The notes beneath the pieces were generated by a model, which worked only from the letters and a program-made list of their open reading frames with translations, was not told where the DNA came from and searched no databases. This document shows, in pieces, positions 15,692 to 49,200 of a stretch of DNA of 64,000 nt. Made by a program: the position numbers and the translations under genes. The stretch covers positions 1 through 64,000 of the IMG/VR virus record IMGVR_UViG_3300032288_003533; one strand, written 5' to 3'. This DNA comes from a virus. The first letter of the stretch is position 1. Every line of letters begins with the position of its first letter.

Positions 15692-15708
15692 TTTAAATTA
15701 AATATATT

Positions 15709-16254: not shown

Positions 16255-16257
16255 TTA

Positions 16258-16737
16258 ATGGAAAAAGAAACACTAAAAAAGATATTTGATTTTCTTGAAA
16301 AGAATGATAATAAAAGAAAACCACTTATGTGGAAATTAAAAAACAATATACCAATAACAGAAAAAGATGATTTGATTGTTAAAGGTAGTTTGGATTTATC
16401 TAGTTCAAACATAACCTCACTACCAAAAGGTTTGGAAGTTAAAGGTGGTTTAAGTTTATATGAATCAGAAATAATCTCCTTACCAGAAGGCTTGAAGGTT
16501 GGGGGTGATTTAGATTTAAGAAATTCATATATAGAAAGTTTACCAGAAGGATTGGAAGTTGGGGATGAATTGGATTTAGCATATACATACATAACATCAT
16601 TACCAAAAGGCTTAAAAGTTGGGGGGCTTTTGATTATAATTGAGAGTGATTTATTAAAATATTCTGATGAAGAAATAAGAAAAATGATTGAACCTGGGTA
16701 TATTAAAAAGAAAATAGTTAGAGAATATTATAGATAA
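16258..16737 (+). CDS. LRR cassette protein 3 (4 repeats)
   Basis: 159 residues: N-cap MEKETLKKIFDFLEK with LMWKLKNNIP, an I-T-E-K-D-D-L insertion seen also in the cassette at 42668, four repeats and the C-cap DEEIRKMIEPGYIKKK. Last member of the first cluster; the next gene has its own host-type promoter 6 bases after this stop. Confidence 0.85.
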   Translation: MEKETLKKIFDFLEKNDNKRKPLMWKLKNNIPITEKDDLIVKGSLDLSSSNITSLPKGLEVKGGLSLYESEIISLPEGLKVGGDLDLRNSYIESLPEGLEVGDELDLAYTYITSLPKGLKVGGLLIIIESDLLKYSDEEIRKMIEPGYIKKKIVREYYR

Positions 16738-31175: not shown

Positions 31176-31190
31176 TATATATTTATTATA
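31176..31190 (+). promoter_or_regulatory. Late-type promoter motif TATATATTTATTATA
   Basis: TATATATTTATT variant 11 bases before the prohead protease ATG at 31202. Confidence 0.4.
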
Positions 31191-31201: not shown

Positions 31202-31903
31202 ATGAATAGTTTAAGAATACTAGAAGCAAATGAAATTGGTCATGGAATATTAATTGAGGCAGATGCTGGGTGGATTAATCCCAAAGACCAATTAAATATT
31301 AATTTAATACAAGAAAACAAGAAGTTAGATTATAAGAACCCTTTTGAATTTTATGCTGTATTGCAAAAGCATGATGTACCAAATAGAAATGGTAGAACAT
31401 ACCCTGAAAAAATATTAAAAAGGGAGGCTGAAAGATACAAAAAAATTATTGAAAAGGGTTTATCTACTTCTGAATTAAATCACCCCGAATCATCCTTAAT
31501 TGACTTAGATAGAGTTGCTCACTTAATAACAGATATTTGGTGGGATAATAATATACTAATGGGCAAATTATTGTTATTAACTTCTCCTGGCTTCCATGAG
31601 AGGGGTATTGTATCAACCAAGGGTGATGTTGCCGCAAATCTAATGAGGCAAGGAGTAAGCCTAGGAATCAGTTCTAGGGGGGTTGGATCACTTAAAAAAG
31701 TTGGGGAGAAAAATGAGGTTCAAGATGATTTTGAATTGATTTGTTTTGATTTGGTTTCATCGCCATCAACGCCTGGGGCATACCTATTCTCAAATAAGGA
31801 AGATAGGCATAAGTATGATGAGAAATTGGAAGAAGAAAAGAAAATTGACCCATCAAATAATATATTAAAATTAATGAATAAACTTGATAGTTATTTAAAA
31901 TGA
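31202..31903 (+). CDS. Prohead core protease (T4 gp21-like)
   Basis: 233 residues. The herpesvirus-assemblin-like serine protease fold of gp21 is marked by NRNGRTYPEKIL, the catalytic His in TSELNHPESS, and the catalytic Ser in LGISSRGVGSL, followed by ELICFDLVSSPSTPGA. T4 gp21 matures the prohead by cutting capsid, core and packaged proteins after (L/I)-x-E. Its presence supports the reading of E-Q sites in many proteins here as cleavage points. Its stop overlaps the start of the first LRR cassette of cluster 2 (ATGA), an unexpected neighbour. Confidence 0.93.
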   Translation: MNSLRILEANEIGHGILIEADAGWINPKDQLNINLIQENKKLDYKNPFEFYAVLQKHDVPNRNGRTYPEKILKREAERYKKIIEKGLSTSELNHPESSLIDLDRVAHLITDIWWDNNILMGKLLLLTSPGFHERGIVSTKGDVAANLMRQGVSLGISSRGVGSLKKVGEKNEVQDDFELICFDLVSSPSTPGAYLFSNKEDRHKYDEKLEEEKKIDPSNNILKLMNKLDSYLK

Positions 31904-33210
31904 AAAAAGAAACAATAAGAAAAATAATTGATTTTATTGAAAATCAAGAAAAAAAAGCACCAACAATTAAAGGTTCTTTCTTATGGAAACTTGTGGTTCA
32001 GGAACCATTAACAAAAGAAGAGTTAAATCATAAAGGTAATTTGGATTTGACACATTCAACAATAACACAATTACCAAAAGGATTGAAAGTTGGGGGATAT
32101 TTAAATTTAGGAGCAACAGAAATAGAATTTTTACCAGAAGGATTGGAAGTTGGAGGTGGTTTATCTTTAGCATTTTCAAATATAAAATCCTTACCAAAAG
32201 GCTTGAAAGTTAGGGGGGATTTGAATTTAGATAATACAAAAATAACTTCATTACCAGAAGGATTGAAAGTTGGGGGTGTTATATATGCAACAGATTCTAA
32301 TCTACTTAATTTATTAGAAATACCAAAAAACATAGAAACTGAAGGAATTATAACTAACACCAAATTATTACTTAATCCAAATTTAAAAATAAATAGGGGT
32401 TTGAATTTATCAAATTCAAAAATAACATCCTTACCAAAAGGATTAAAAGTTAATGGTAATTTGATATTGAGTATTTCAAAAATAACAGAATTACCAAAAG
32501 GTTTGGAAGTTGGAGGTGATTTGGACTTAAATAATTCAAAAATAACCTCATTACCAGAAGGATTGAAAGTTGGAGGTATGATTTATGCAAATATGTTTAA
32601 TTTAGTAGAAATACCAAAAAATATAGAAACTATAGGAATTATAACTAACACCAATGTACTACTTTCAAGTTTAACAATAAAAAATAACTTGTATTTAGCA
32701 GGTTCAAAAATAACCTCATTACCAAAAGGCTTGAAAGTTTATGGGAATATGAGTTTAGGGCAGAGTAAAATAAAAACATTACCAGAAGGGTTAGAAGTTG
32801 GTGGTTGGCTAAATATTTCTGATACTATGATAAGAACATTACCAAAAGGATTAAAAGTTGGTGGTTCTCTGGTTATATCTTATACAAGGATAGGAAAACT
32901 ACCAAAAGGATTAAAAGTTGGGGGTATTATCTATGCAGATAAAACTTATCTATCTAATATAGATGAAATACCAAAAGATGTAATAACTAGTGGAATTTTA
33001 ACTCACAACAAATTAATAATTAATCCAAATTTACCAATAAATAATGACTTAGATTTATCTAAGTCAACAATAAATTCATTACCAAAAGGATTAAAAGTTA
33101 ATGGTAATTTAAATATTAAGAAATCAAGATTGGCAGTACATTCAGACAATGGTTTATTAGAAATGATTGGGGATGATGGCTATATAAAAGGTTCAATAAT
33201 TAGATATTAA
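31900..33210 (+). CDS. LRR cassette protein 4 (12 repeats, three composite modules)
   Basis: 436 residues, longest but one of the family. N-cap MKKETIRKIIDFIEN with FLWKLVVQEPLTKEEL. Twelve LP-x-x-L repeats are interrupted three times by a related ~45-residue module: G-x-I-Y-A, then (E)IPK-x-I-x-T-x-GI(I/L)T(N/H), then a strand such as NPNLKINRGLNLS. This gives a higher-order repeat not present in other copies. C-cap is GLLEMIGDDGYIKGSIIR. Translationally coupled to the prohead protease by a 4-base overlap and to the next cassette by one base. Confidence 0.85.
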   Translation: MKKETIRKIIDFIENQEKKAPTIKGSFLWKLVVQEPLTKEELNHKGNLDLTHSTITQLPKGLKVGGYLNLGATEIEFLPEGLEVGGGLSLAFSNIKSLPKGLKVRGDLNLDNTKITSLPEGLKVGGVIYATDSNLLNLLEIPKNIETEGIITNTKLLLNPNLKINRGLNLSNSKITSLPKGLKVNGNLILSISKITELPKGLEVGGDLDLNNSKITSLPEGLKVGGMIYANMFNLVEIPKNIETIGIITNTNVLLSSLTIKNNLYLAGSKITSLPKGLKVYGNMSLGQSKIKTLPEGLEVGGWLNISDTMIRTLPKGLKVGGSLVISYTRIGKLPKGLKVGGIIYADKTYLSNIDEIPKDVITSGILTHNKLIINPNLPINNDLDLSKSTINSLPKGLKVNGNLNIKKSRLAVHSDNGLLEMIGDDGYIKGSIIRY

Positions 33211-33611
33211 TGGAAATAGCAACATTAAAAAACATATTTAATTTCCTTGAAGGAAGTGAAAAAAAGTTCTCCATAAAATGGAAAATGATGAATAAAATCC
33301 CCTTTACTAAAGAACAATTACACGTCAAAGGTGATTTGGATTTACAAGGGGAAGACATACAACAATTGCCAGATGGGCTATATGTTAAACGTAATTTATT
33401 GTTAAATGCCACACCAATAAAAAAATTGCCAAAAGGTTTAAGAGTTGGTGGCAATTTGGAATTACAAGATTGTGAAAATTTAAAATCCCTACCAAAAGAT
33501 TTAAAAGTTCGTGGGGGTATATGGCTTGCTGGTACACCATTAGGAAGAATGTCAGATGAGAAAATATTAAACATAGTAAAACCAGATGGTTATATAGGTA
33601 AAATATATTAA
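33210..33611 (+). CDS. LRR cassette protein 5 (3 repeats)
   Basis: 133 residues, the smallest copy: N-cap MEIATLKNIFNFLEG with SIKWKMMNKIPFTKEQL, three LP-x-x-L repeats, and the C-cap DEKILNIVKPDGYIGK. TAATG junction with the preceding cassette. Shows the minimum repeat number of the family. Confidence 0.82.
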   Translation: MEIATLKNIFNFLEGSEKKFSIKWKMMNKIPFTKEQLHVKGDLDLQGEDIQQLPDGLYVKRNLLLNATPIKKLPKGLRVGGNLELQDCENLKSLPKDLKVRGGIWLAGTPLGRMSDEKILNIVKPDGYIGKIY

Positions 33612-33612
33612 A

Positions 33613-34203
33613 ATGAAAGAAGAAACATTAGGAAAGATATTTGAATTTATCAAAGAAAACAGCAAACAAAATTTACCATTATTTTGGAAAATGAAAAATA
33701 ATATACCATTAACAGAAGAAGATTTGACTGTTAAAGGTGATTTAAATTTACATAATTCAAAAATAACATCCTTACCAGATGGATTAAAAGTTGAGGGTGA
33801 ATTGGATTTATCATATTCAAATATAAAATCATTACCAAAAGGTTTAATAGTTAATAGCCACTTAATATTAGAAGAATCAGAAATACGTTCTTTACCAGAA
33901 GGTTTAAAAGTTGGGGGCAATTTAATGTTAGCAAGTTGTGAATATATTTTTTCATTACCAAAAGGATTAAAAGTTGGACATATTTTAGATTTAACAAAAT
34001 CAAATATAAAAACATTACCAGAAGGATTGGAGGTTGGACATAGTTTATGGCTATTTGGATGTTGGGGTTTAACCTCATTACCAAAAGGCTTGAAAGTTGG
34101 GGGTGACTTAAATATTTATAAAACAAAATTAGAAGAATATTCAGATGATGAATTAAGAGAAATGATTAAACCAGGATTTATAAAAGGTTCAATAAATAGA
34201 TAA
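33613..34203 (+). CDS. LRR cassette protein 6 (6 repeats)
   Basis: 196 residues; N-cap MKEETLGKIFEFIKEN, LFWKMKNNIPLTEEDLTVKG, six repeats with a 22-residue GCWGLTSLP variant, C-cap DDELREMIKPGFIKGS. One base separates it from cassette 5 and 2 bases from cassette 7, with which it shares the N-cap segment NNIPLTEEDLTVKGDLNL exactly. Confidence 0.85.
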   Translation: MKEETLGKIFEFIKENSKQNLPLFWKMKNNIPLTEEDLTVKGDLNLHNSKITSLPDGLKVEGELDLSYSNIKSLPKGLIVNSHLILEESEIRSLPEGLKVGGNLMLASCEYIFSLPKGLKVGHILDLTKSNIKTLPEGLEVGHSLWLFGCWGLTSLPKGLKVGGDLNIYKTKLEEYSDDELREMIKPGFIKGSINR

Positions 34204-34205
34204 TA

Positions 34206-34796
34206 ATGGAAAAAGAAACATTAAAAAGAATATTTGATTTTATTGAAGGGAATGAAGGGCATAAAAAACCATTATTTTGGAAATTGAAAAATAATATACC
34301 ATTAACAGAAGAAGATTTAACTGTTAAAGGTGATTTAAATTTAGAAAATTCAAAAATAACATCCTTACCAGATGGTTTGAAAGTTGAGGGTGATTTGATG
34401 TTAACCTTTTCAAAAATAACCTCATTACCAGATAATTTACAAGTTGGGGGTCATTTAAACATAGTTGGTTGTGATGCCATAAACTCATTACCAAAAGGAT
34501 TAAAAGTTGGCGACAGTATTCAATTATCCCCAAAACGAATAGTTTCCATTGGGGAAGGATTGTTTGTTGGTGGGGATTTAAATTTATTTAATAGCCAAAT
34601 AAAATCATTACCCCAAGGAGTTAAAATTGGGGGGGAGTTAGGTTTATCCTTTACAAAACTAGAAACATTACCAAAAGGTTTGATAGTTAAAGGTGGTTTG
34701 GAGATTGCTGGAACACCATTAGAAAACTATTCAAATAAAGAATTAAGAGATATGGTTAAACCTGGTGTTATAAAAGGTCCAATAATTAGAGATTAG
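34206..34796 (+). CDS. LRR cassette protein 7 (6 repeats, one degenerate)
   Basis: 196 residues; same length and N-cap segment as cassette 6. One repeat reads SIGEGLFVGG instead of LP-x-x-L, and another uses QGVKIGG. C-cap KELRDMVKPGVIKGP. Junctions of 2 bases on each side. Confidence 0.85.
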   Translation: MEKETLKRIFDFIEGNEGHKKPLFWKLKNNIPLTEEDLTVKGDLNLENSKITSLPDGLKVEGDLMLTFSKITSLPDNLQVGGHLNIVGCDAINSLPKGLKVGDSIQLSPKRIVSIGEGLFVGGDLNLFNSQIKSLPQGVKIGGELGLSFTKLETLPKGLIVKGGLEIAGTPLENYSNKELRDMVKPGVIKGPIIRD

Positions 34797-34798
34797 AA

Positions 34799-36022
34799 AT
34801 GAAAATAGAAACATTAAAAAGAATATTTGATTTTATTGAAAATAAAGAAAACAAAAAACATAAAGCCAAAGCAACTTTAAAGTGGAAGTTGTTTTTTAAT
34901 GAACCATTAACAAAAGATGATTTGATTGTTAATGGAAATTTGGATTTGGCAAATTCAAAAATAACATCTTTACCTGAAGGATTGGAAATTAAGGGTACTT
35001 TGGATTTAAGAAATTGCACAAGTTTAACATCATTACCACAAGGATTGAAAGTTGGGGGTAATTTATATTTAATTAGTTCAAAAATAACATCTTTGCCTGA
35101 AGGATTGGAAATTAAGGGTACTTTGGATTTAAGAAATTGCACAAGTTTAACATCATTACCAGAAGGATTAGAAGTTGGTGGTGATTTAAATTTATCTAAT
35201 TGCACAAGTTTAACATCATTACCACAAGGATTGAAAGTTAAAGGAGATTTAGATTTATATGGTTGTAAAAACTTAAAATACTTACCAATAGGATTGATAG
35301 TTGTTGGTGATATAAATTTACAATACTCAACAATAACAACCTTACCAGAAGGCTTAAAAGTTGGTGGTGATTTGAATTTATATAATTGCAAAAGTTTAAA
35401 ATCCCTACCAAAAGTATTGAAAGTTGGTGGTTTTTTAAATTTAAACAAATGCACAAGTTTAACATCATTACCAGAAGGATTAGAAGTTGGGGGTACATTA
35501 TATTTAAAGAATTGTTCCAAATTAAAATCATTACCAATAGGGTTGAAAATTGGGGAGGCTTTGCAATTGAATGATACAAATATAACTACTCTCCCAAAAG
35601 ATTTGAAATTTGTTACTGATTTGGATTTATCAGGTTCTAAAATAATGTCATTACCAGATAATTTACATGTTAGGGGTAGGTTAGATTTGGCTTTTTGCGA
35701 AAATTTAACTTCATTACCAACTGGATTAAAAGTTGATGGTGATTTAATATTAACCTTTGCAAAAATAACCTCATTACCAGATAATTTACAAGTTGGCAAA
35801 TATTTGGATTTGGGTAATACAAAAATAACTTCACTACCTAAAGGGTTAAAAGTTGGTAGTAGATTGAATATAAGTGGTACACAAATAACCTCATTACCAA
35901 AAGGACTAAAAGTTGGAGAAAATTTACTTATAGTGAACACAAATTTAAAAAAATATACTGATGAGGAATTAAGAGAAATGGTTAAGCCTGGATTTATAAA
36001 AGGTGAAATATATAGAGGATAA
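34799..36022 (+). CDS. LRR cassette protein 8 (16 repeats)
   Basis: 407 residues, the greatest repeat number in the window. N-cap MKIETLKRIFDFIENKENKK with the charged insertion seen in cassettes at 44410, 44949, 45557 and 47213. It mixes 20-residue units with 21-residue units containing N-C-T-S-L-T-S. An internal segment of about 70 bases at ~34968 is repeated at ~35089 with one or two differences, evidence of recent internal duplication. C-cap DEELREMVKPGFIKGE. A 384-residue antisense reading frame is only a by-product of repeat composition. Confidence 0.87.
   Translation: MKIETLKRIFDFIENKENKKHKAKATLKWKLFFNEPLTKDDLIVNGNLDLANSKITSLPEGLEIKGTLDLRNCTSLTSLPQGLKVGGNLYLISSKITSLPEGLEIKGTLDLRNCTSLTSLPEGLEVGGDLNLSNCTSLTSLPQGLKVKGDLDLYGCKNLKYLPIGLIVVGDINLQYSTITTLPEGLKVGGDLNLYNCKSLKSLPKVLKVGGFLNLNKCTSLTSLPEGLEVGGTLYLKNCSKLKSLPIGLKIGEALQLNDTNITTLPKDLKFVTDLDLSGSKIMSLPDNLHVRGRLDLAFCENLTSLPTGLKVDGDLILTFAKITSLPDNLQVGKYLDLGNTKITSLPKGLKVGSRLNISGTQITSLPKGLKVGENLLIVNTNLKKYTDEELREMVKPGFIKGEIYRG
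34968..35165 (+). repeat. Near-identical internal LRR repeat pair
   Basis: The stretch beginning CTGAAGGATTGGAAATTAAG and running through AATTGCACAAGTTTAACATC occurs twice about 121 bases apart with almost no change. Confidence 0.8.
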
Positions 36023-36063
36023 AAAAATTTAATTATTTTTAATTATTTTTACAAAAAAAATAA

Positions 36064-36074
36064 CTATATTTATA
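36064..36074 (+). promoter_or_regulatory. Late-type promoter motif CTATATTTATA
   Basis: CTATATTTATA lies 23 bases before the ATG at 36098. Confidence 0.5.
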
Positions 36075-36097
36075 CAAACAAATAAAAAACAATACCT

Positions 36098-36307
36098 ATG
36101 GATGAAAAATTCTTTGTTGCCAAATTAACTTTTTCTCTACCTGATGAGAATACTGGTAAAATGAAAAAAGTAAGAGAAGAGAAACTAGTGAAGGGTTATT
36201 CTGTAACAGATGTTGAAGCAAAAGTTACTGAAAAATATCAAAATTTCACACAAGATTGGAGGATAACTTCTGTATCAGAATCAAAAATTGATGAAGTTTT
36301 TCAATAA
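36098..36307 (+). CDS. DUF4494-like small protein
   Basis: 69 residues. FVAKLTFSLPDENTGKMKKVREEKLVKGYSVTDVEAKVTEK (shown in part) followed by WRITSVSESKIDEVF matches the pattern of DUF4494, a family I know from Bacteroidetes genomes and their phages: a beta hairpin, a TDAEA-like helix and a final strand. Function is unknown. It forms a single-gene unit between a late-type motif and a strong terminator, just upstream of the scaffold and capsid genes. Confidence 0.72.
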   Translation: MDEKFFVAKLTFSLPDENTGKMKKVREEKLVKGYSVTDVEAKVTEKYQNFTQDWRITSVSESKIDEVFQ

Positions 36308-36327: not shown

Positions 36328-36362
36328 AAACCCCTAGCATAAAAAATGTTAGGGGTTTTTTA
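36328..36362 (+). terminator. Terminator after the DUF4494-like gene
   Basis: Stem AAACCCCTAGCAT / ATGTTAGGGGTTT with a short poly-A loop and T-rich tail. Confidence 0.85.
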
Positions 36363-36435: not shown

Positions 36436-38121
36436 ATGCAACCAGAAAAAAATTTAGTAGAAGAAGCACTAATTCAAATGAAACAAATTGAAGATGTGCT
36501 TGCAGAAAACGCAAAAGGAATACTTTCTTCAACAATGAAGGAAGAAATCGAAGAGTTGGTTAAAGAATCTTTAAATGAACAAGAAGATATTGAAGATGAT
36601 GAGACTGATTTAGATATGGATGATAATGAATCTGAGTTAGATATGGAAGATGATATGGATATGGAAGATGATATGGAAGATGAGGATGAAATGGATATGG
36701 AAGATGACATAGAAGATGAGGATGAAATGGATATGGATGATGATGTGATTGATATGAGGGGTGCATCACAAAGTGAACTTTTAAAAGTGTTTAAAGCAAT
36801 GGATGATGAAGATGGTATAATTATATCAAAAGATGGTAATGATATTTCATTAACTGATGAAGATTCTGATTCTGAATATTTAATAAAACTAGGTGAACAA
36901 ATAGAAGATTTTGGTTCTGGTATGGATGATGATATGGAATATGATGCTCAAGAACATGGTATGAGATATTTTAATGATGACGATGAAGAAGGTGATTTTG
37001 AACCTTTTGATGACGAAAATGAAGATGTTGATATGGACTATGCTATGAGCAAAAGACTTGGTTTGAAATATTTTAATGACAACGAAGATGATGATGATAT
37101 GGAATTTGATGATCAAGATTATCAACCAATAGAAGAGGAAGATTATGATACTCAATCAACAATTGATAAAATTTTTGAAAAAACAAATAAAAATAACAAT
37201 ATTATTTATGAAATAGAAATGGAAGACGAAGAAGAGTTTGATATGGAAGATGAAGAAGAGTTTGATATGGAAGATGAAGAAGAGTTTGATATGGATATGG
37301 AAGATGATGAAGATTTTGATTGTTCTAATTTTAGCACTTCAGATTATTTAGCCAAAAACCCAAAAGCAACAATTTCAGATGTATATGATTATTTAAAAGA
37401 AAAAGGTTGTTTAAGTGGTAGTGCTGATAGTATTGGGGAAGATTATAATTATTTAGGTGAAGCTAAAAAGGCTTCCAAATTTAAGTACAAGATGCCAAAA
37501 AATGGGTTTAATGAAAAAATGAAAGAGGGTCCTAAAAAAATGGGAACAGGTAAAGCCAAGTTTGATTATGACAAATCTGGTGCAAATGTTGGTGGTAAAA
37601 TGAAAAAAGTATCAACTAGCAAAAAACAAGAAACAAAAGAAGCATCAAGAACTTATGGTATGGGAAGTAAAGCTGGTAGAGGTCTAAAGAAAGGCATAAC
37701 ACCAAATAGAAATTTACATTTAGAAGCTCTGGAAAACCAAGTTTTAGAATTAAAACAAAAGAATAATGATTATAAAAAATCATTAAATATTTTCAGAGAG
37801 AAACTAAACGATGTTGCAATTTTCAATGCTAATTTGGCATATGCAACAAGATTGTTCACAGAACACTCAACTACTAAAAAAGAAAAAATAAACATTTTAA
37901 GGAGATTTGATAATGTACAAACATTACAAGAATCAAAAAACTTATATTCAACTATAAATAATGAGTTGTCAAAAGATTCAAAATCACCTTTAAGTGAATC
38001 TGTTAATCGTAAAATATCAAATGTTGCATCAACAGGTTCATCTGCTAACTTGATTGAATCAAAAACTTATGAAAATCCTCAATTTTTGAGGATGAAGGAT
38101 TTGATGGGTAAATTAGGTTAA
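36436..38121 (+). CDS. Acidic scaffold-like prohead core protein
   Basis: 561 residues directly upstream of the capsid gene, the position of T4 gene 22. Residues ~35-300 are extremely acidic with repeats such as DMEDD and D-E-E-E-F-D-M-E (three copies near 37220-37300). The middle is basic (KKMGTGKAKFDYDKSG). The C-terminal ~160 residues are a long coiled coil (LENQVLELKQKNNDYKKSL) plus NDVAIFNANLAYATRLFTEH. K-E-S-L-N-E-Q near residue 50 is a gp21-type site, consistent with core proteolysis during maturation. No direct sequence match to gp22 can be claimed. Confidence 0.75.
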   Translation: MQPEKNLVEEALIQMKQIEDVLAENAKGILSSTMKEEIEELVKESLNEQEDIEDDETDLDMDDNESELDMEDDMDMEDDMEDEDEMDMEDDIEDEDEMDMDDDVIDMRGASQSELLKVFKAMDDEDGIIISKDGNDISLTDEDSDSEYLIKLGEQIEDFGSGMDDDMEYDAQEHGMRYFNDDDEEGDFEPFDDENEDVDMDYAMSKRLGLKYFNDNEDDDDMEFDDQDYQPIEEEDYDTQSTIDKIFEKTNKNNNIIYEIEMEDEEEFDMEDEEEFDMEDEEEFDMDMEDDEDFDCSNFSTSDYLAKNPKATISDVYDYLKEKGCLSGSADSIGEDYNYLGEAKKASKFKYKMPKNGFNEKMKEGPKKMGTGKAKFDYDKSGANVGGKMKKVSTSKKQETKEASRTYGMGSKAGRGLKKGITPNRNLHLEALENQVLELKQKNNDYKKSLNIFREKLNDVAIFNANLAYATRLFTEHSTTKKEKINILRRFDNVQTLQESKNLYSTINNELSKDSKSPLSESVNRKISNVASTGSSANLIESKTYENPQFLRMKDLMGKLG

Positions 38122-38147
38122 TAAAAATAAATAAAAAAAAATAAAAA

Positions 38148-39929
38148 ATGGGAGCATTATTAGAATCAGGTCTTGTTGGTAATATTGGGTTGAAACACCT
38201 TAAAGTTATCAAAGAGGACACAATTAACAAATGGAATAAATTAGGATTCCTTGAAGGCTTAAAAGGTCATTTAAAAGAGAATGTTGCACAGTTGTATGAA
38301 AACCAAGCATCATATCTTATTAATGAAGCAGCTAGTACATCTGATACTGGTGCATTTGAAACAGTTGTTTTCCCAATTGTTAGGAGAGTATTCTCTAAAT
38401 TATTGGCAAATGATATTGTTTCAGTACAAGCAATGAATTTACCTATTGGTAAATTATTCTTCTTTGTACCTCAAATTCAAGAAAGAACTAATACTACTGA
38501 ACATTGGGCACCTTATGGTTCACCTAATGCAGCAACTGGTCAAACACCATCTTCTGGTTATGATTCAAACACATATAAAAATCTATATGATAGATTTTAT
38601 GAAGGTAGCGAGCCTGGTTTAAATCCAGAAGGTCTTTATGACTATTCAAAAGGGCAATATTCTGCTATAACATCAAATTTAACTACTGTTGCTTGGTCTA
38701 ATGGTGAATTAATTGCTTCTGCTTATTCACAGACTGACTATAGAAAAGTATTAGTTGTTATGTCTGGATTCACAGGTGATGGTGCAGGTAAATTAATTGG
38801 CCCAGATGGTCATCCAATGGATAATGAAAGTTTCTTAGCTGGTTTAGTAGTTTTAGGAGTATCAACAAATTCAACAACTTCAGGTAGTACAAATACTCCA
38901 TATTTATTTAGAGTTGTTACTCAAAAATATGGAAAAGGTATTGTGCAATATGGATCACAAACATCACATACATTTGGTAGTTATACTGATGGTGGTGGTA
39001 CTTATAATAATATTTGTGATGCTGAAGGTAAAATATATTTAGAGATTGATTTACAAACTCCAGCAACTGTGGGTGCAAATTCTTTAGATGGTTATACTGG
39101 ATCAACATTTACATCTTCAACAGCAGCAGGTAATGCGCTAAAATGTGTTTATAGAGTTTATAAAAATCTTGAATTTGAAGATAAAATTGGTGAGGTTTCT
39201 TTTGATTTACAATCTGTAACTGTTTCAGTAACTGAACGTAAATTAAGAGCACAATGGTCACCAGAAATGGCACAAGATGTTGCTGCATTCCATAACATTG
39301 ATGCTGAAGCAGAATTAACTGCTTTATTATCAGAGCAAATTGCAGCTGAAATTGATAGAGAAATTTTAAGAGACCTTAGAAAAGGTGCTGCTTGGAACTT
39401 ACGTTGGGATTACAATGGTTGGAAGAGATTGGGTACAAATGCTATCCCTTACACACAGAAAGACTGGAATCAAACATTAATCACAACTATTAACCAAGTA
39501 TCAGCACAAATCCACAAATCAACATTGAGAGGTGGAGCAAACTGGATTGTGGTTTCTTCTGAAGTTAGTGCAGTTTTTGATGATTTAGAATACTTCCATG
39601 TATCAAATGCATCTCCTGAACAAGACCAATATAATATGGGTATTGAAAGAGTTGGTACATTAGCTGGACGTTACCAAGTTTATAGAGATCCTTATTTCCC
39701 AGCAAATACAATTTTGTTAGGACACAAAGGAACATCTTTACTTGATACTGGATATATTTATGCACCATATGTACCTCTGCAATTAACACCAACTATGTAT
39801 AATCCATTTAACTTTACACCAATCAAAGGTATTATGACACGTTATGCTAAGAAAATGGTTAATAATCGTTTCTATGGTAGAATTACTGTTGATGGTGTTA
39901 GAACATTTGACTTACAAGAGTTGAGATAA
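38148..39929 (+). CDS. Major capsid protein (T4 gp23-like)
   Basis: 593 residues, T4 gp23 length range. Recognisable segments: FPIVRRVFSKLLANDIVSVQAMNLPIGKLFFF, VTERKLRAQWSPEMAQDVAAFHNIDAEAELTALLSEQIAAEIDREIL (in part), and IHKSTLRGGANWIVVSS. An expected maturation cut lies after E60 in YLINE|AAST, fitting the gp21 rule (I-N-E) and close to the T4 site after residue 65. It forms the HK97-fold hexamers of the head. Promoter seems shared with the scaffold gene 26 bases upstream; a strong terminator follows. Confidence 0.95.
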   Translation: MGALLESGLVGNIGLKHLKVIKEDTINKWNKLGFLEGLKGHLKENVAQLYENQASYLINEAASTSDTGAFETVVFPIVRRVFSKLLANDIVSVQAMNLPIGKLFFFVPQIQERTNTTEHWAPYGSPNAATGQTPSSGYDSNTYKNLYDRFYEGSEPGLNPEGLYDYSKGQYSAITSNLTTVAWSNGELIASAYSQTDYRKVLVVMSGFTGDGAGKLIGPDGHPMDNESFLAGLVVLGVSTNSTTSGSTNTPYLFRVVTQKYGKGIVQYGSQTSHTFGSYTDGGGTYNNICDAEGKIYLEIDLQTPATVGANSLDGYTGSTFTSSTAAGNALKCVYRVYKNLEFEDKIGEVSFDLQSVTVSVTERKLRAQWSPEMAQDVAAFHNIDAEAELTALLSEQIAAEIDREILRDLRKGAAWNLRWDYNGWKRLGTNAIPYTQKDWNQTLITTINQVSAQIHKSTLRGGANWIVVSSEVSAVFDDLEYFHVSNASPEQDQYNMGIERVGTLAGRYQVYRDPYFPANTILLGHKGTSLLDTGYIYAPYVPLQLTPTMYNPFNFTPIKGIMTRYAKKMVNNRFYGRITVDGVRTFDLQELR

Positions 39930-39953
39930 TCAATTTTATATTGAAATAATAAG

Positions 39954-39985
39954 AAGGGTTGCATTTTTTTGCAGCCCTTTTTTTA
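39954..39985 (+). terminator. Terminator after the major capsid gene
   Basis: Stem AAGGGTTGCA / TGCAGCCCTT, T loop, TTTTTTTATTT tail. Confidence 0.85.
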
Positions 39986-39990
39986 TTTGT

Positions 39991-40001
39991 AGATATTTAT
40001 A
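39991..40001 (+). promoter_or_regulatory. Late-type promoter motif AGATATTTATA
   Basis: AGATATTTATA lies 12 bases before the ATG at 40014. Confidence 0.5.
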
Positions 40002-40013
40002 AATAAAAATATT

Positions 40014-41535: not shown

Positions 41536-41595
41536 TTAATTTAAAATTTTGGTTGATTAATTTATAGTTATAATAACTAATATTTTTTAAATAAG

Positions 41596-41641: not shown

Positions 41642-41653
41642 TATTTTAATACT

Positions 41654-42067: not shown

Positions 42068-42081
42068 AGTTTTTTTTATTA

Positions 42082-42089: not shown

Positions 42090-42119
42090 CTACAAGTTGT
42101 TTTAAAAATCAAATTACAT

Positions 42120-42668
42120 TCATTCCCATTCAGGATCCTCATCTAGTATATCGCCTTTAATATATCCAGGCTTAACCATTTTTTTTAATTGTTCTTCAGT
42201 GTATTTAGTTAACTTTGTGTAAGTTATATTTAATCCATCATCAACTTTCAATCCTTTTGGTAATGAGTTTAATTTGTAACAATGATTTAAATATAATGTA
42301 CCATTAACTTTTAACCCATCTGGTAATGATTCAAGTTGTTCGCAACCATATAAATCCAAATCACCACTAACTTTCAATCCTTTTGGTAATGATGTTATAT
42401 TTGAATATTGTAAAGTTAAATCACCCCCAACTTCCAATCCTTCTGGTAATGAAGTTATTTTTGAATAGTCTAAATTCAAATTGCCACTAACTTTCAATCC
42501 TTCTGGTAATGAAGTTATTTTAAAATTTGATAAATCCAAATCATCATCAATGTTTAATTCATCTTTTGTTAATGGTGAACCATTTGTTATTTTCCATAAA
42601 AATGGAATTTTTGCACCATCTAACTTTTCAAGAAAATTAAATATATTCTTTAGTGTTTCTTTTTCCAT
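42120..42668 (-). CDS. LRR cassette protein 9 (5 repeats)
   Basis: 182 residues; N-cap MEKETLKNIFNFLEKLDG with FLWKITNGSPLTKDEL, five repeats, C-cap EEQLKKMVKPGYIKGD with an extra acidic tail (LDEDPEWE). TAATG junction with the upstream cassette at 42668. Last gene of its cluster before the host-promoter gene at 41654. Confidence 0.85.
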   Translation of the reverse strand: MEKETLKNIFNFLEKLDGAKIPFLWKITNGSPLTKDELNIDDDLDLSNFKITSLPEGLKVSGNLNLDYSKITSLPEGLEVGGDLTLQYSNITSLPKGLKVSGDLDLYGCEQLESLPDGLKVNGTLYLNHCYKLNSLPKGLKVDDGLNITYTKLTKYTEEQLKKMVKPGYIKGDILDEDPEWE

Positions 42669-43198
42669 TATCTAATTATATTATTTATATATCCAGGATT
42701 AACCATTTGCCTTAATTCCTCAGTTGAATATTTTGTTAATGGTGTATTTTTAATAAACAAACGACCCCCAACTTTCAACCCTTTTGGTAATGATGTTATA
42801 TTTGAATGTTTCAAATCCAAAAATCTCCCAACTTTTAATCCTTCTGGTAGTGAAGTTATATTTGCACAATCAAATAAAGATAAACTCCCACCAACTTTCA
42901 ACCCTTTTGGTAATGATGTTATATTTGAATATCCCAAATCCAAAAACCCCCCAACTTCTAATCCTTCTGGTAATGATTGTATATTTTTACAACCATATAA
43001 ACTTAAATTAGCCTCAACTTTCAATCCATCTGGTAATGATTCAATATCTGTTTTTGTTAAATCCAAATCCCCTTTAACAATCAAATCATCTTTTTCTGTT
43101 ATTGGTATATTGTTTTGTAATTTCCACATAAGTGGTGCATTATGCTCACCATTTTCTTCAAGAAAATCAAATATCTTTTTTAGTGTTTCTTTTTCCAT
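42668..43198 (-). CDS. LRR cassette protein 10 (5 repeats)
   Basis: 176 residues; N-cap MEKETLKKIFDFLEENGEHN, LMWKLQNNIPITEKDDL as in cassette 3 on the other strand, five repeats, C-cap TEELRQMVNPGYINN. One-base overlaps on both sides. Confidence 0.85.
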   Translation of the reverse strand: MEKETLKKIFDFLEENGEHNAPLMWKLQNNIPITEKDDLIVKGDLDLTKTDIESLPDGLKVEANLSLYGCKNIQSLPEGLEVGGFLDLGYSNITSLPKGLKVGGSLSLFDCANITSLPEGLKVGRFLDLKHSNITSLPKGLKVGGRLFIKNTPLTKYSTEELRQMVNPGYINNIIR

Positions 43199-43845
43199 TA
43201 TCTTTCTATTTTTCCAAGTATAAATCCTGGTTTAACCATATCTCTTAATTCCTTATCTGAAAATTTTGCTAACCCAGACTCGTCAATGGCTAAATTACCA
43301 TAAACCTCCAACCCTTTTGGTAATGAAGTTAAATTTTTGCAACGCATTAAATTTAACAATCTATTAACTTTTAATTCTTTTGGTAAAAATTCTATCTCTG
43401 AATCCTCCAAAGATAATATACCAACTTCCATTCCTTCTGGTAATGATTCCAAATATGGGGTAGTATTTAAATTTAATTCACCTTCAATTTTCAATCCTTC
43501 TGGTAATGATTGTATTTGTGTATATGATAAATCCAAATCTAATTTAACTTTTAATCTTTTTGGTAATTTTCTTATTTCTGTATAATTTAAAACTAAATGT
43601 CCCCCAACTTCCAATCCTTCTGGCAATGATTTAATATCTGAATTTTGTAAAAACAAATCACCTTCAACTTTCAATCCTTCTGGCAATTCTTCTATCTCTA
43701 AATCTGATAAATTCAAATCACCTTTAACATGTAAATCATCTTCTGTTAATGGAAAACCATTTGACCATTTCCACCTAAGTGGCGTATTCCTATTATCCTT
43801 CTTTTCAAGGAAATTAAATATCTTTTTTAGTGTTTCTTTTTCCAT
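43198..43845 (-). CDS. LRR cassette protein 11 (7 repeats)
   Basis: 215 residues; N-cap MEKETLKKIFNFLEKKDNRN, RWKWSNGFPLTEDDLHVKG, seven repeats including a shortened 19-residue one (SLPEGMEVGILSLEDS), C-cap DKELRDMVKPGFILGK. Begins 3 bases after the Cys-rich protein at 43849, so it is probably transcribed from that gene's promoter. Confidence 0.85.
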   Translation of the reverse strand: MEKETLKKIFNFLEKKDNRNTPLRWKWSNGFPLTEDDLHVKGDLNLSDLEIEELPEGLKVEGDLFLQNSDIKSLPEGLEVGGHLVLNYTEIRKLPKRLKVKLDLDLSYTQIQSLPEGLKIEGELNLNTTPYLESLPEGMEVGILSLEDSEIEFLPKELKVNRLLNLMRCKNLTSLPKGLEVYGNLAIDESGLAKFSDKELRDMVKPGFILGKIER

Positions 43846-43848
43846 TAT

Positions 43849-44409: not shown

Positions 44410-44949
44410 TTATATCCTAATTATTCCTTGTATATAACCAGGCTTAACCATTTCTCTTAATTCTTCATTAGTAAATTTGGCTAAATTATGTTTATTATCT
44501 ATATTTAAATATCCTTTAACTATTAGTCCTTTTGGTAATCTATTTATTGGTGTGTTCATTATTATTAACCAAGTATTAATCACTAACCCTTCTGGTAGTG
44601 AAGTTACTTTTGAATTTTGTAAATATAAAGAAGTACCAATTTTAATATCATCTGGTATTTTTTTTATATTAGAGTATGATAAATCCAAAATAACACCAAC
44701 TTTCAATCCTTTTGGTAATTCTTCTAATTTTGAAAATCTAGTAATCATATTGCCTTTAACTTCCAAATTATCTGGCAATGATTTTAAATTTGAATCTGAT
44801 AAATCCAAATCACCATTAACAACTAAATCTTCTTTTGTTAGGGGTTCACCAAAATTTAATTTCCAAATAAAGTTATCTCTATTTTTATGTTTTTTGTTTT
44901 CATTCTTCTGAAGAAAATCAAATATTTTTTTTATTGTTTCTTTTTCCAT
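44410..44949 (-). CDS. LRR cassette protein 12 (5 repeats, one degenerate)
   Basis: 179 residues; N-cap with charged insertion (MEKETIKKIFDFLQKNENKK, FIWKLNFGEPLTKEDL), repeats including KIPDDIKIGT in place of LP-x-x-L, C-cap NEELREMVKPGYIQGI. Last of the six-gene minus cluster. Confidence 0.85.
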   Translation of the reverse strand: MEKETIKKIFDFLQKNENKKHKNRDNFIWKLNFGEPLTKEDLVVNGDLDLSDSNLKSLPDNLEVKGNMITRFSKLEELPKGLKVGVILDLSYSNIKKIPDDIKIGTSLYLQNSKVTSLPEGLVINTWLIIMNTPINRLPKGLIVKGYLNIDNKHNLAKFTNEELREMVKPGYIQGIIRI

Positions 44950-45557
44950 TATCTAATTATTTGCTCCTTTATAAATCCAGGTTTAACCATATTTCTTAAT
45001 TCTTCATCAGAAAATTTTACTAATGGTGATCCACTTATAATTAAATTCCCCCTAACTTTCAACCCTTTTGGTAATGATGTTAAACTTGTGCAATTTTCTA
45101 AATACAAATCACGACCAACTTCCAATCCTTCTGGCAAAGATGTTAAACTTGTGCAATTTTCTAAATCTAAATTATGCGCAACTTTCAATCCTTTTGGTAA
45201 AGATATTAAATTTGTTGAATTTTCTAAATATAAAGATGCTCCAAGTTCTAATCCTCTTGGCAGTGAAATTAAATCTTCACAACCTTCTAAATCTAAACGA
45301 CCCCCAACTTTTAAGTTATCAGGTAATGATTTAATAGATGAATAATTTAAAATCAAATAACCACCAACTTTCAACCCATCTGGTAATGAGGTTATTTTTG
45401 AATATGATAAATCCAAATTACCTTTTACATTTAACTCTTCTTCTGTTATTGGTTCATCAAATTTTAATTTCCAAATAATGCTATCCCTATCTTTATGTTT
45501 TTTATTTTCTTCCTTTTCAAGAAAATCAAGTATATTTTTTATTGTTTCTTTTTCCAT
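44949..45557 (-). CDS. LRR cassette protein 13 (6 repeats)
   Basis: 202 residues; N-cap MEKETIKNILDFLEKEENKK with IIWKLKFDEPITEEEL, six repeats, three of them containing the N-C/S-T-S/N-L-T/I-S variant shared with cassettes 8 and 17. C-cap DEELRNMVKPGFIKEQ. TAATG junctions on both sides. Confidence 0.85.
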   Translation of the reverse strand: MEKETIKNILDFLEKEENKKHKDRDSIIWKLKFDEPITEEELNVKGNLDLSYSKITSLPDGLKVGGYLILNYSSIKSLPDNLKVGGRLDLEGCEDLISLPRGLELGASLYLENSTNLISLPKGLKVAHNLDLENCTSLTSLPEGLEVGRDLYLENCTSLTSLPKGLKVRGNLIISGSPLVKFSDEELRNMVKPGFIKEQIIR

Positions 45558-46036
45558 TATCTTTCTATATTTCCTTTTATATAACCATCTGGTTTGACCA
45601 TTTCTCTTATTTTTTCATCTGAAAGTTTTGCTAATGGAGTGTTTACAATATTTAAATCACATTTAACTTTTAAACCTTTTGGTAATGTTTCTATATCTGA
45701 ATATGATAAATCCAGATTACGACCAACATATAAATCACCTGGCAAGGATTTAAAACGGGTCCATTCAAAATTCAAATCACCCTCAACAAATAATTTTTCT
45801 GGGAATGTTTTTAAACTTGAGAACCGAAAATCAGCATCTCCTATAACTTTTAACCCTTTTGGTAAATGTTGTATATTTAAGCCAGATATATCCAAATCAC
45901 CTCTAACAATTAAATCTTCTTTTATTGATGGGTCATTAAACATAAATTTCCACCTTAAAGTTCCTTTGTCTTTATGTTTTTTATTATCTTCTTTTTCAAT
46001 AAATTCAAGTATATTTTTTAGTGTTTCTATTTCCAT
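45557..46036 (-). CDS. LRR cassette protein 14 (4 repeats)
   Basis: 159 residues; N-cap MEIETLKNILEFIEKEDNKK, LRWKFMFNDPSIKEDL, repeats with a diverged pair (TFPEKLFVEG, SLPGDLYVGR), C-cap DEKIREMVKPDGYIKGN, resembling cassette 5. Confidence 0.83.
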   Translation of the reverse strand: MEIETLKNILEFIEKEDNKKHKDKGTLRWKFMFNDPSIKEDLIVRGDLDISGLNIQHLPKGLKVIGDADFRFSSLKTFPEKLFVEGDLNFEWTRFKSLPGDLYVGRNLDLSYSDIETLPKGLKVKCDLNIVNTPLAKLSDEKIREMVKPDGYIKGNIER

Positions 46037-46506
46037 TATCTAATTATATTTCCTTTAAATGAACCATTATTTAAATTTTTATTTCTTCTTATTTCATCAT
46101 CTGTATATTTTTTGGCAAGGAAGGATTCTCCTATATATAAATTACCACCAACATATAAATTTTTTGGAATTTCTTCAATATCTGAATGTCTGAAAAATAA
46201 ATCACCCCCAACATATAAATTGTCTGGTAATGATTCTATATTTGTATGTGATAAGTTAAAACTATCCTTAACATATAACCCTTCTGGTAATGATTCTATT
46301 AGTGAACCCAATAGCCACAATTTACCTTCAACTCTCATCCCATCAGGTAATGAGGTTACAGTTGTAAATTCCAAATTCAAATTGCCTTTTATATTTAAAT
46401 CCTCTTTTGTTAGTTCATTATTTACCCATTTCCATAAAAATGGTGTTTTGATATCATCATTTTCTTCAAGGAATTCAAATATTTTTTTTATTGTTTCTTT
46501 TTCCAT
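46036..46506 (-). CDS. LRR cassette protein 15 (4 repeats, diverged)
   Basis: 156 residues; N-cap MEKETIKKIFEFLEENDDIK, FLWKWVNNELTKEDLNIKG. Repeats use the LYV variant (SLPDNLYVGG, EIPKNLYVGG), and the C-cap is altered (DDEIRRNKNLNNGSFKGNIIR), lacking the V-K-P-G element. The most diverged copy. Confidence 0.83.
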   Translation of the reverse strand: MEKETIKKIFEFLEENDDIKTPFLWKWVNNELTKEDLNIKGNLNLEFTTVTSLPDGMRVEGKLWLLGSLIESLPEGLYVKDSFNLSHTNIESLPDNLYVGGDLFFRHSDIEEIPKNLYVGGNLYIGESFLAKKYTDDEIRRNKNLNNGSFKGNIIR

Positions 46507-47213
46507 TATCTAACTATTTTTCCTTTTATAAATCCAGGTTGAATCATCTTTCTTAATCTATAATTACTAATTTCATCTAAATGGGAAAGATTCAACATTA
46601 TAGATCCATAAACTTTCAACCCTTTTGGTAATGAGGTTAAATCTGTTAGTCTTAAATCCAAATCTCCCCCAACTTTCAATCCTTCAGGTAATGATTGTAT
46701 ATTTTTACAACCAAATAACACCAAATCTTTCCTAACTTCAAGTCCTTCTGGTAATGAAGTTATTTTTGTATTATTTAAAACTAAATGCCCTCCAACTTTC
46801 AATCCTTCTGGTAATGAAGTTATTTTTGTATCATTTAAATACAAATCCCTACCAACTTTCAATCCTTTTGGTAGGAAGGTTATATCTGTATTAGATGACA
46901 ACAAATTACCACCAACTTCCAATCCTTCTGGTAATGAAGTTATTTTTGTTGACCCTAAATTTAAATCACCACCAACTTTCAAACCTTCTGGCAATGAGGT
47001 TATTTTTGATTTTCTTACATCAAAATTACCACCAACTTTTAATCCTTCTGGTAATGAGGTTATTGTTGCTCCATAAAACCACAAATTACCTATAACATCT
47101 AAATCTTCTTTGGTTATTGGCTTATTATTTAATATTTTCCATTTAAATGGTGCTCTATGTTCTCCTTTCTCTTCAAGGAATTCAAATATTCTTTTTAATG
47201 TTTCTTTTTCCAT
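46506..47213 (-). CDS. LRR cassette protein 16 (8 repeats)
   Basis: 235 residues; N-cap MEKETLKRIFEFLEEKGEHR, FKWKILNNKPITKEDL, eight repeats of which most are near-identical TKITSLPEGLKVGG units, C-cap YRLRKMIQPGFIKGK. Within-gene homogeneity points to recent expansion. Confidence 0.86.
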   Translation of the reverse strand: MEKETLKRIFEFLEEKGEHRAPFKWKILNNKPITKEDLDVIGNLWFYGATITSLPEGLKVGGNFDVRKSKITSLPEGLKVGGDLNLGSTKITSLPEGLEVGGNLLSSNTDITFLPKGLKVGRDLYLNDTKITSLPEGLKVGGHLVLNNTKITSLPEGLEVRKDLVLFGCKNIQSLPEGLKVGGDLDLRLTDLTSLPKGLKVYGSIMLNLSHLDEISNYRLRKMIQPGFIKGKIVR

Positions 47214-47698
47214 TATCTAACTATTTTTCCTTTTATATAACCATCTGAACCAATCATCTTTAATAAAACAGAATCTGAAAGTTTTGCCAATGGTGTTTTT
47301 ATAAGATATAAATTTTCTTCAACTTTCAACCCTTCTGGTAATGATGTTAAACTTGTGCAATTTTCTAAATATAAATAATCCCCAACTTCCAATCCTTCTG
47401 GCAATGATGTTAAACTTGTGCAATTTTCTAAAGATAACTTCCCCCCAACTTTTAACCCTTTTGGTAAGGATGTTAAATTTGTGCAATTATATAAATTTAA
47501 ATAATCTTTAATTTCCAATCCTTCTGGTAATGATGTTATTTTTAAATTTGCCAAATTTAAATTATCTACAATCAAATCATCTTTTGTTAATGGTTCATTG
47601 AAAAATAATTTCCATCTTAAAGTTCCCTTGTTTTTATTTTTTTTGTTTTCTTTATCTTCAAGAAAATCAAATATTTTTTTTAATGTTTTATTTTCCAT
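47213..47698 (-). CDS. LRR cassette protein 17 (4 repeats)
   Basis: 161 residues; N-cap MENKTLKKIFDFLEDKENKK, LRWKLFFNEPLTKDDLIV (matching cassette 8), four repeats rich in N-C-T-S-L-T-S units, C-cap LLKMIGSDGYIKGK. Its start overlaps the stop of the tail gene at 47698 by one base, so this six-gene cluster is read from the tail operon. Confidence 0.86.
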   Translation of the reverse strand: MENKTLKKIFDFLEDKENKKNKNKGTLRWKLFFNEPLTKDDLIVDNLNLANLKITSLPEGLEIKDYLNLYNCTNLTSLPKGLKVGGKLSLENCTSLTSLPEGLEVGDYLYLENCTSLTSLPEGLKVEENLYLIKTPLAKLSDSVLLKMIGSDGYIKGKIVR

Positions 47699-49200
47699 TA
47701 TTTTTTATTTACGATAAAAAAGTGCAATTGTTTTTTGTATGTGGTAATCTCCCCAGCAATTTGAACCTTTAAATCAACAAAGTATTTATTTGGTATTTTA
47801 TCTCTTGTGTCAAAATTAAAATAATATTCATTTGGTGTTCTGTTAAATTCTGTCCAATCTTGAACTTGAACTTGGGTTTCCCCCTCCTTAACATAAACAC
47901 GATAAAATCCTTTAATGTTTGTTAATAATTCACTTGTGCTATATGCTTTTTTAATTATGACCCCAATCTTTCTAACATCAGTATTGAGTATTTTTTCCCC
48001 TTGCATAATGTTATAGAAATCAAAATTATATGTTTCACTTTCTGTTGTTTTTGTTCCAGTTTTAATTCTGTTATTCATACCATATAGTATAAATTCATTT
48101 TCAACATTAGGTAATGTAATTCCATTTAAGGTCATCCCACTCCAAACATCAGTAAACACCATAGGTGTTGTATATCCACTAAATGAATTTGGTACAGATA
48201 CTTCATAAACTCCCTTGGTTATTAATCTTGTTGGTAAGTTTGCACAACCAACAACAACATCCCCATCATTGTCAAATATATTAACAATTGGATTATTATC
48301 CAAATTTGAGTATGAATCTTCATCTGTTACATAAAGATATAATTTATTTATCCTATTCTTAACAAAATTATTTCTATCATCCTTAATCAAATCATCATAA
48401 GTTGTTAATAAATAAGGTTCATAAAATGTCTGGGTATGCCTTGAAAAGAAGCCAACAGAATAGCTTTCTGTTAAGCCTGTTGCGTTTTCATAAGATGGGG
48501 GATATGCAATACCCCAACCAGAATAAGATGTGGTAGAGCCACTTAAAATGTCATTTATTTCATTTGTCATATCAAATGAAATATCTTCATTACCAAATTC
48601 AAAATGTTGGGTATCAATAATGGTTAATCCAGAATAATTAACATTTCCATTATTTTTATTGTTATAAATCCCAGATTCTGTCCAACCACTTATTGTTTTA
48701 CCACTAAACCAATTGGAGGGAGTATCAGCAAATGAATTATCATCTTTAATAACCAAAGGGTATTTTGCCCCGGATCCAGAATTAAGATTTTTTGAATAAT
48801 TTGTATAATCATATCCAACACCTTCATCCCAATACTGAACATAACCAGTATTACCACTGCTCAATGGTATTCTAAATAAAACCAAATCAAAAGAAGATGC
48901 CCTACGTTTTTGGCTTGGCATTTTTCCATTTAATAAAGATTCATCAAAAGATGCTGTATTTTTTAATACTAATGTGTGTGTAACACTTGATAATGAACCA
49001 CTAAATATGATATCATCATTGACTTTATCAATTAGGGGTTGTAAATTTAAATCAAATATTAGCCTTGTTGGACCATATGCTGGAATTAAATAATCTGTTG
49101 CACCATAAGTTAACTCAATAACAGGGTTTCTACCTGTATTTGTTTTTGAATTTGCAATTAAAGTGTTATTTCTATTAAAATAAGATAGATGAATTGACAT
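47698..49200 (-). CDS. Tail/baseplate-associated structural protein
   Basis: 500 residues, beta-rich with many Tyr, Asn, Gly and Ser, as in baseplate wedge or fibre-attachment proteins. Segments such as YGATDYLIPAYGPTRLIFDL and YNSGWGIAYPPSYE-like stretches (SYSGWGIAYPPSYENATGL) suggest jelly-roll or carbohydrate-contacting modules. No enzyme motif. Placed between the gp5-like gene and the LRR cassettes. GATATTTATT lies 10 bases upstream of its ATG, inside the preceding gene's end. Confidence 0.7.
   Translation of the reverse strand: MSIHLSYFNRNNTLIANSKTNTGRNPVIELTYGATDYLIPAYGPTRLIFDLNLQPLIDKVNDDIIFSGSLSSVTHTLVLKNTASFDESLLNGKMPSQKRRASSFDLVLFRIPLSSGNTGYVQYWDEGVGYDYTNYSKNLNSGSGAKYPLVIKDDNSFADTPSNWFSGKTISGWTESGIYNNKNNGNVNYSGLTIIDTQHFEFGNEDISFDMTNEINDILSGSTTSYSGWGIAYPPSYENATGLTESYSVGFFSRHTQTFYEPYLLTTYDDLIKDDRNNFVKNRINKLYLYVTDEDSYSNLDNNPIVNIFDNDGDVVVGCANLPTRLITKGVYEVSVPNSFSGYTTPMVFTDVWSGMTLNGITLPNVENEFILYGMNNRIKTGTKTTESETYNFDFYNIMQGEKILNTDVRKIGVIIKKAYSTSELLTNIKGFYRVYVKEGETQVQVQDWTEFNRTPNEYYFNFDTRDKIPNKYFVDLKVQIAGEITTYKKQLHFFIVNKK

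What the first reader, a model, noticed from the sequence alone, without database searches (positions are those of the whole stretch)
31900..36022. LRR cluster inserted between prohead protease and scaffold/capsid genes
In T4-like phages gp21 is followed by core and capsid genes. Here the protease stop overlaps (ATGA) the start of an LRR gene, and five cassettes follow before the DUF4494, scaffold and capsid genes. They would be translated late, at head-assembly levels. The six-gene cluster at 44410-47698 is likewise joined by a one-base overlap to a tail gene. Attachment to late structural operons argues for a virion or late role.
Basis: partly seen in the sequence, partly recalled or inferred. 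Interest (0 to 1): 0.62.

Follow-up and report, generated by a model that had tools for sequence, protein, structure and literature searches.

The report
Expanding phage leucine-rich-repeat gene cassettes
A group of T4-like phages, probably infecting Bacteroidota, carries dozens of small leucine-rich-repeat genes slotted in tandem between essential genes such as the capsid protease and its neighbour; their copy number and exposed faces vary quickly, which suggests a tunable set of binding proteins rather than fixed parts of the virus particle.

Summary
Five stand-alone LRR genes (31900-36022) lie between the gp21-type prohead protease and DUF4494/scaffold/gp23. They are coupled by -1 to +2 nt junctions, and the first overlaps the protease stop (ATGA). 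The window holds 17 such genes in four clusters; a 270-kb relative holds 41 in nine. A sister record (321 kb, protease 78% identical) holds none, and in 46 sister-group loci the protease is followed by DUF4494 after 8-20 nt. The cluster is therefore a lineage-specific insertion. Among 23 close loci it holds 0-5 cassettes, and one is empty. Clusters recur at about eight fixed sites. Three are in the head/tail block; others lie beside superoxide dismutase/helicase, RNA ligase/PfkB kinase and unknown genes. In 21 of 23 clusters a TATATTTATA promoter-like motif precedes the cluster or its leader gene. Structural genes carry it too, but so do nrdB-like and superoxide dismutase genes. Co-expression with structural genes is supported, late-only expression is not shown, and a virion role is weakened: no fusions, no conserved cleavage or targeting sequence, dispensable site, non-structural sites. 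Repeats vary most on the concave binding face; caps and core are conserved. Best reading: a recombining, clade-specific repertoire of soluble binding proteins, ligand unknown.

The parts
31202..31903 (+). gp21-type prohead protease, leader gene of the cluster
   Evidence: Peptidase_S77 3.7e-23; PHROG 207 3.1e-42; promoter-like ATATTTAT 23 nt before its start
31179..31186 (+). TATATTTATTATA promoter-like motif upstream of the protease-LRR operon
   Evidence: motif in the last 40 nt before 19 of 91 gene starts against about 2.2 expected; matches to a consensus are not proof of a promoter
31900..33210 (+). LRR cassette B1, 436 aa
   Evidence: ORF; N-cap, repeats and C-cap
33210..33611 (+). LRR cassette B2, 133 aa; orthologues at the same site in many relatives
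33613..34203 (+). LRR cassette B3, 196 aa
34206..34796 (+). LRR cassette B4, 196 aa; orthologues at the same site
34799..36022 (+). LRR cassette B5, 407 aa; repeat number varies between relatives (366-449 aa)
36023..36097 (+). spacer with its own ATATTTAT motif (36066) before DUF4494; kept in the empty-site relative L026, absent from the sister group
36098..36307 (+). DUF4494 protein
   Evidence: Pfam 9.2e-11
36436..38121 (+). scaffold-position acidic protein
   Evidence: position only; no family hit
38148..39929 (+). major capsid protein gp23
   Evidence: Pfam 7.9e-75
15125..16737 (+). LRR cluster A, 3 cassettes, with its own ATATTTAT motif at 15100
42120..43845 (-). LRR cluster D, 3 cassettes, behind the 140-aa gene 43849-44271 (motif at 44293)
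44410..47698 (-). LRR cluster C, 6 cassettes, sharing one base with 47698-49200 (motif at 49219)
47698..49200 (-). 500-aa conserved gene upstream of cluster C; tail role unproven
   Evidence: no family hit; orthologue in the sister genome, 58% identity

Best explanation
The cluster is one site of a clade-specific, multi-copy family of stand-alone capped-LRR binding proteins. Shown here: each cassette encodes a conserved helical N-cap, a run of repeats of about 20 residues (mostly 3-7, up to 18), and a conserved C-cap, with no other domain; cassettes are stacked in tandem at a fixed set of intergenic sites; they lie behind the promoter-like motif of the gene or operon they joined, or have their own. 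Inferred: copy number and chimerism change by homologous (unequal) recombination between the conserved cap ends, which keeps frames and neighbours intact; diversity is concentrated on the concave face, so the arrays work as a tunable repertoire of soluble ligand binders made during infection. Most likely they bind host or rival-phage proteins (counter-defence, take-over or exclusion) rather than build the particle. The ligands are unknown.
For: Empty sites: in 46 of 46 sister-group loci the protease is followed by DUF4494 after 8-20 nt. 22 of 23 close loci carry 1-5 cassettes at the site and L026 carries none, with a clean junction. Family size: 17, 41, 32 and 19 LRR genes in four records against 0 of 328 genes in the sister record; the next largest family in the 270-kb record has 4 members. 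Sites recur across contigs, and about half are non-structural. Recombination: exact repeats of at least 24 nt concentrate in LRR genes, which are 14% of the G000 record but hold 58 of its 69 such pairs; a 308-nt identical stretch joins two cassettes of one cluster in G002; an N-cap-like remnant lies in the spacer of L031, L032 and L035. Variation: repeat-position entropy is 3.2-3.8 bits at concave positions 10, 12, 14, 15 and at 17, 2.2-2.7 at exposed positions 3, 6, 8 and 19, and 0.25-1.05 in the core. dN/dS is 0.27-0.54 in cassettes against 0.07-0.08 in protease and DUF4494, and 0.075 in the LRR core, so the fold is kept while exposed faces change. Model: pLDDT 88.9, capped solenoid. Promoter-like motif at the cluster or leader in 21 of 23 clusters (counted).
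Against: No ligand, expression or phenotype data exist. Concave dN/dS (0.51) is not above 1, and the pairs compared are not independent, so relaxed constraint is not excluded. Convex positions may simply be more constrained by the turn geometry. Some sites do lie in the virion block, as a virion role would predict. The family scan of bacterial genomes used narrow patterns.
Confidence: 0.5

Rival explanations
1. Virion or adhesion role: the LRR proteins are late decorations, internal head proteins or receptor-binding accessories, made with head and tail proteins.
For: Three of about eight recurrent sites are in the head/tail block and are conserved across records; ATGA or one-base coupling to the protease and to 47698-49200; promoter-like motif shared with protease, scaffold and tail sheath genes. 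A repeat-similar LRR protein is an ordered part of a polar flagellar motor (8z5u), so this repeat type can be a structural accessory.
Against: The same cassettes lie by SOD/helicase and RNA ligase/PfkB genes; L026 lacks them at the gp21 site; no fusions to structural domains; no signal peptide-like stretch, and [LI]xE prohead-protease motifs in the N-cap are only modestly above shuffled expectation (74 of 145 against 59).
Confidence: 0.25
2. Neutral or weakly selfish expansion: a cassette that duplicates by recombination at permissive junctions, with little benefit to the phage.
For: Copy number varies 0-5 at one site, duplications are recent, remnants occur.
Against: Strong purifying selection in the repeat core (dN/dS 0.075); reading frames intact in the matches listed; maintained at up to 15% of the record in a replicating phage.
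Confidence: 0.15
3. Assembly helpers: each cassette protein is a chaperone or adaptor for the product of its leader gene.
For: Fixed sites and translational coupling to particular leader genes.
Against: The leader genes work without cassettes in the sister group, leaders are functionally unrelated, and the nearest relative of a cassette is often at another site (38 of 109).
Confidence: 0.08

Closest known systems
Leucine-rich repeat proteins of uncultured Caudovirales phages (UniProt A0A6J7X9U5, A0A6J7X691, A0A6J5LZF9)
   Same: Best structural matches in the viral library, 36-38% identity over the length; short stand-alone LRR proteins of phages.
   Different: Listed as single proteins; the tandem, multi-site, 17-41 copy arrangement is not described in what I could search.
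LRR protein of the polar flagellar motor (PDB 8z5u)
   Same: Same repeat type LPxGLxVxGxLxL (E 7.2e-35 with the family profile).
   Different: Only the repeats match (profile 41-151), not the caps; it is part of a bacterial organelle.
LRR domains of SspH/SlrP/IpaH/XopL-type effectors
   Same: 20-residue LP-type repeats; weak matches far below the curated cut-offs.
   Different: No catalytic ligase or secretion domain; the cassettes are repeats plus caps only.
Lamprey variable lymphocyte receptors / repebodies
   Same: Variation concentrated at the concave-face positions of LxxLxLxx[N/S/T/C]xL (the comparison with VLRs is from general knowledge).
   Different: No homology beyond the LRR fold and no somatic assembly; diversity here is between genes and genomes.
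LRR gene of Edwardsiella phage Edno5
   Same: Same repeat type, 44% identity over 82% of the 407-aa cassette.
   Different: Single gene, next to recE/recT-type recombination genes and repressors, not a structural operon.
~35-copy zinc-ribbon expansion of Bacillus phage G (PMC7824862)
   Same: A large lineage-specific paralogue expansion in a jumbo phage.
   Different: Different fold; that paper's main text never mentions leucine or LRR.

Membership tests
T4-like myovirus head module | gp21 S77 protease followed by core/scaffold and gp23 | tested here: met
   Peptidase_S77, scaffold position and Gp23 in order; the LRR insertion interrupts the order
LRR protein family | Tandem repeats with LxxLxLxx[N/S/T/C]xL core and solenoid fold | tested here: met
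   20-residue repeat in 587 units; AlphaFold model with pLDDT 88.9; LRR structures are the PDB matches
T4 internal head proteins | N-terminal capsid-targeting helix ending in a conserved prohead-protease site | tested here: inconclusive
   N-terminal helix present, but position 14 is E in only 111 of 145 and F[LI]E in 108; [LI]xE barely above shuffled expectation; no fusion or proteomics
IpaH/SspH/SlrP-type LRR effectors | LRR plus a catalytic ligase domain | tested here: not met
   Weak repeat matches far below cut-offs and no extra domain
Known anti-phage defence proteins | Match to a PADLOC model | tested here: not met
   No match for five cassettes
Variable binding repertoire (VLR-like in principle) | Diversity focused on the ligand-facing concave surface | tested here: met
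   Entropies; positive selection itself not shown
Variable binding repertoire (VLR-like in principle) | Different cassettes bind different ligands | not testable with these tools
   Needs binding assays

The most novel reading that the evidence does not exclude
A phage lineage keeps a genome-encoded, recombining repertoire of LRR binders, a viral counterpart in principle to VLR or NLR diversity, whose members are swapped at fixed docking sites to track changing host or rival-phage proteins.
Probability: 0.25. Interest if true: 0.85.

Novelty: new variant of a known kind. Interest (0 to 1): 0.58.

Why it matters
LRR proteins usually sit on the receptor or effector side of immunity. A phage clade that gives 8-15% of its record to 17-41 tandem LRR binders, absent from its sister group, would be an unusually large family of phage accessory binding proteins. 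It gives a natural system in which copy number, recombination and binding-face diversity can be read from metagenomes alone. The fixed sites show where essential phage operons tolerate cargo.

Tried and rejected
Bacterial relatives: two scans of 84,980 species gave nothing with the caps; the single hit (L202, Caldilineaceae) is an ordinary long LRR surface-type protein. The patterns were narrow, so distant relatives may be missed. Internal head protein idea: tested by N-terminal motif, weak. Fusion to tail fibres: none among 491 LRR proteins. A purely late promoter: rejected as unproven because the motif also heads nrdB-like and SOD genes. An operon-level test (15-nt cut) gave motif at 19 of 31 LRR operons against 103 of 305 others, Fisher p = 0.003; this cut splits some clusters, and the cluster count is 21 of 23. 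Host-type promoters at LRR operons: 1 of 31 against 35 of 305, not significant. Literature: phrase searches found no paper on phage LRR arrays, and the 8z5u paper was not held.

Full report
1. The window is bases 1-64000 of a 76,232-base virus record, 27% G+C. Between the S77 prohead protease (31202-31903) and DUF4494 (36098-36307), scaffold-position gene and gp23 lie five LRR genes with spacings -4 (to the protease), -1, +1, +2, +2. Three more clusters hold 3, 3 and 6 genes, 17 in all. The 'tail gene' next to the six-gene cluster has no family match; its position and its conservation in the sister record are the only support.

2. It is an insertion. Of 80 loci fetched with the protease, 23 with protease at 88% identity or more show both the protease and DUF4494; 22 of these carry 1-5 LRR cassettes between them and one (L026) carries none. 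All 46 loci with protease at 80% or less that show DUF4494 have it 8-20 nt after the protease stop. L026 still has the roughly 73-nt spacer in front of DUF4494 that the LRR-bearing lineage has, with one base changed inside its ATATTTAT motif; the sister group lacks this spacer. So the array came with, or was followed by, a separate promoter-like element for DUF4494, and it can be lost cleanly. L031, L032 and L035 keep an N-cap-like remnant in that spacer.

3. It is one site of many. A 270-kb relative (G002) has 41 LRR genes in nine clusters, a 113-kb relative 32, a 73-kb relative 19, and the 321-kb sister record none of 328 genes. LRR is by far the largest paralogue family in G002 (41, next 4). 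In the sister record the genes flanking most clusters are adjacent. Across 106 loci the clusters fall at the same sites again and again: protease/DUF4494; the 500-aa gene/140-aa gene; 140-aa gene/next gene; glucosaminidase-type lysin/M20-like peptidase; superoxide dismutase/helicase; a PHROG-7595 gene/cupin-like gene; an AAT-like gene; RNA ligase/PfkB kinase. Only the first three are in the head/tail block. This is the main reason for not reading position as virion function.

4. Expression signals. A motif TATATTTATA lies 19-34 nt before gene starts: 19 of 91 genes in G000 against 2.2 expected, 55 of 326 against 5.2 in G002. It precedes the cluster or its leader gene in 21 of 23 LRR clusters of four records (counted, one of them with the variant TATTTATT). 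It precedes protease, scaffold and tail sheath genes, but also SOD, an nrdB-like gene and the ORF in front of DNA polymerase. It resembles the T4 late promoter (TATAAATA; from general knowledge) in being a single AT-rich box, but late timing is not shown.

5. What the proteins are. 145 distinct proteins, 70-449 aa (median 179), have a helical N-cap (MEKETLKxIFDFLE...WK...), repeats of 20 or 21 residues (LPxGLxVxGxLxLxx[STC]xIxS) and a C-cap (SDxELRxMVKPGYIKG). The AlphaFold model is confident (pLDDT 88.9). No hydrophobic stretch reaches the usual membrane threshold. By sequence profile and by fold the nearest solved structure is the LRR protein of a polar flagellar motor, then bacterial LRR domains and VLR-type repeats. 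Matches are to repeats only.

6. How they vary. Entropy per repeat position is highest at 10, 12, 14, 15 and 17 (3.2-3.8 bits), which map to the concave face and its flank in the canonical LxxLxLxxNxL register; other exposed positions have 2.2-2.7 and the core 0.25-1.05. dN/dS: protease 0.07, DUF4494 0.08, cassettes 0.27 and 0.54; within cassettes core 0.075, convex 0.35, concave 0.51, position 17 1.4 from few changes. These pairs are not independent, so I claim a constrained core and faster exposed faces, not proven positive selection. Exact repeats concentrate in LRR genes, including 308 identical bases between two cassettes of one cluster. On a tree of the caps, the site label is far from random (41 changes against 76 shuffled), yet for 38 of 109 cassettes the nearest relative is at another site: local duplication plus occasional exchange between sites.

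7. Reading. Shown: a lineage-specific family of capped LRR proteins, tandem and translationally coupled, at fixed sites, variable in number, with conserved core and variable binding face. Inferred: homologous recombination at the caps drives turnover; the proteins are soluble binders made during infection; the targets are host or rival factors. A virion or adhesion role is the main rival and is not excluded. The Bacteroidota host is an inference from TAnnTTTG-type promoter matches, DUF4494 and low G+C, not a test.

8. Known or new. LRR proteins in phages exist in databases, and a large paralogue expansion is known in phage G (zinc ribbons, PMC7824862). I found no report of multi-site LRR arrays; the literature held here is partial. 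I rate it a new variant of a known kind.

Noticed in passing
window, e.g. 604, 1457, 2330, 9090, 15100, 29938, 31179, 36066, 36408, 39993 (+); 49219, 44293, 19617 (-): A TATATTTATA box 19-34 nt before many gene starts looks like a phage-specific promoter class; in the sister record G009 the spacing has a second peak at 10-14 nt.
   Followed up: partly
36436-38121: The scaffold-position protein has long acidic tandem repeats (DMEDEEEFDMEDEEEFDMED).
   Followed up: no
L035, L031, L032 just before DUF4494: Spacer contains a remnant that reads like an N-cap start (AAACTAAAAATAATATTTGATTT), a possible fossil of a lost cassette.
   Followed up: partly
L087/L088 (G002 38081-44769): The phage encodes an Fe/Mn superoxide dismutase next to an SNF2-type helicase; eight LRR genes lie between them on the opposite strand.
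   Followed up: partly
57579-58931: HAD hydrolase fused to a nucleotidyl transferase, near weak glycosyltransferase matches: a possible sugar-modification block.
   Followed up: no
L100-L116 (G009): 326 exact direct repeats of 24 nt or more outside any LRR gene in the sister record; nature not examined.
   Followed up: no
window 36329-36362: Terminator-like hairpin (AACCCCTAGCATAAAAAATGTTAGGGGTTTTTT) between DUF4494 and the scaffold gene.
   Followed up: no
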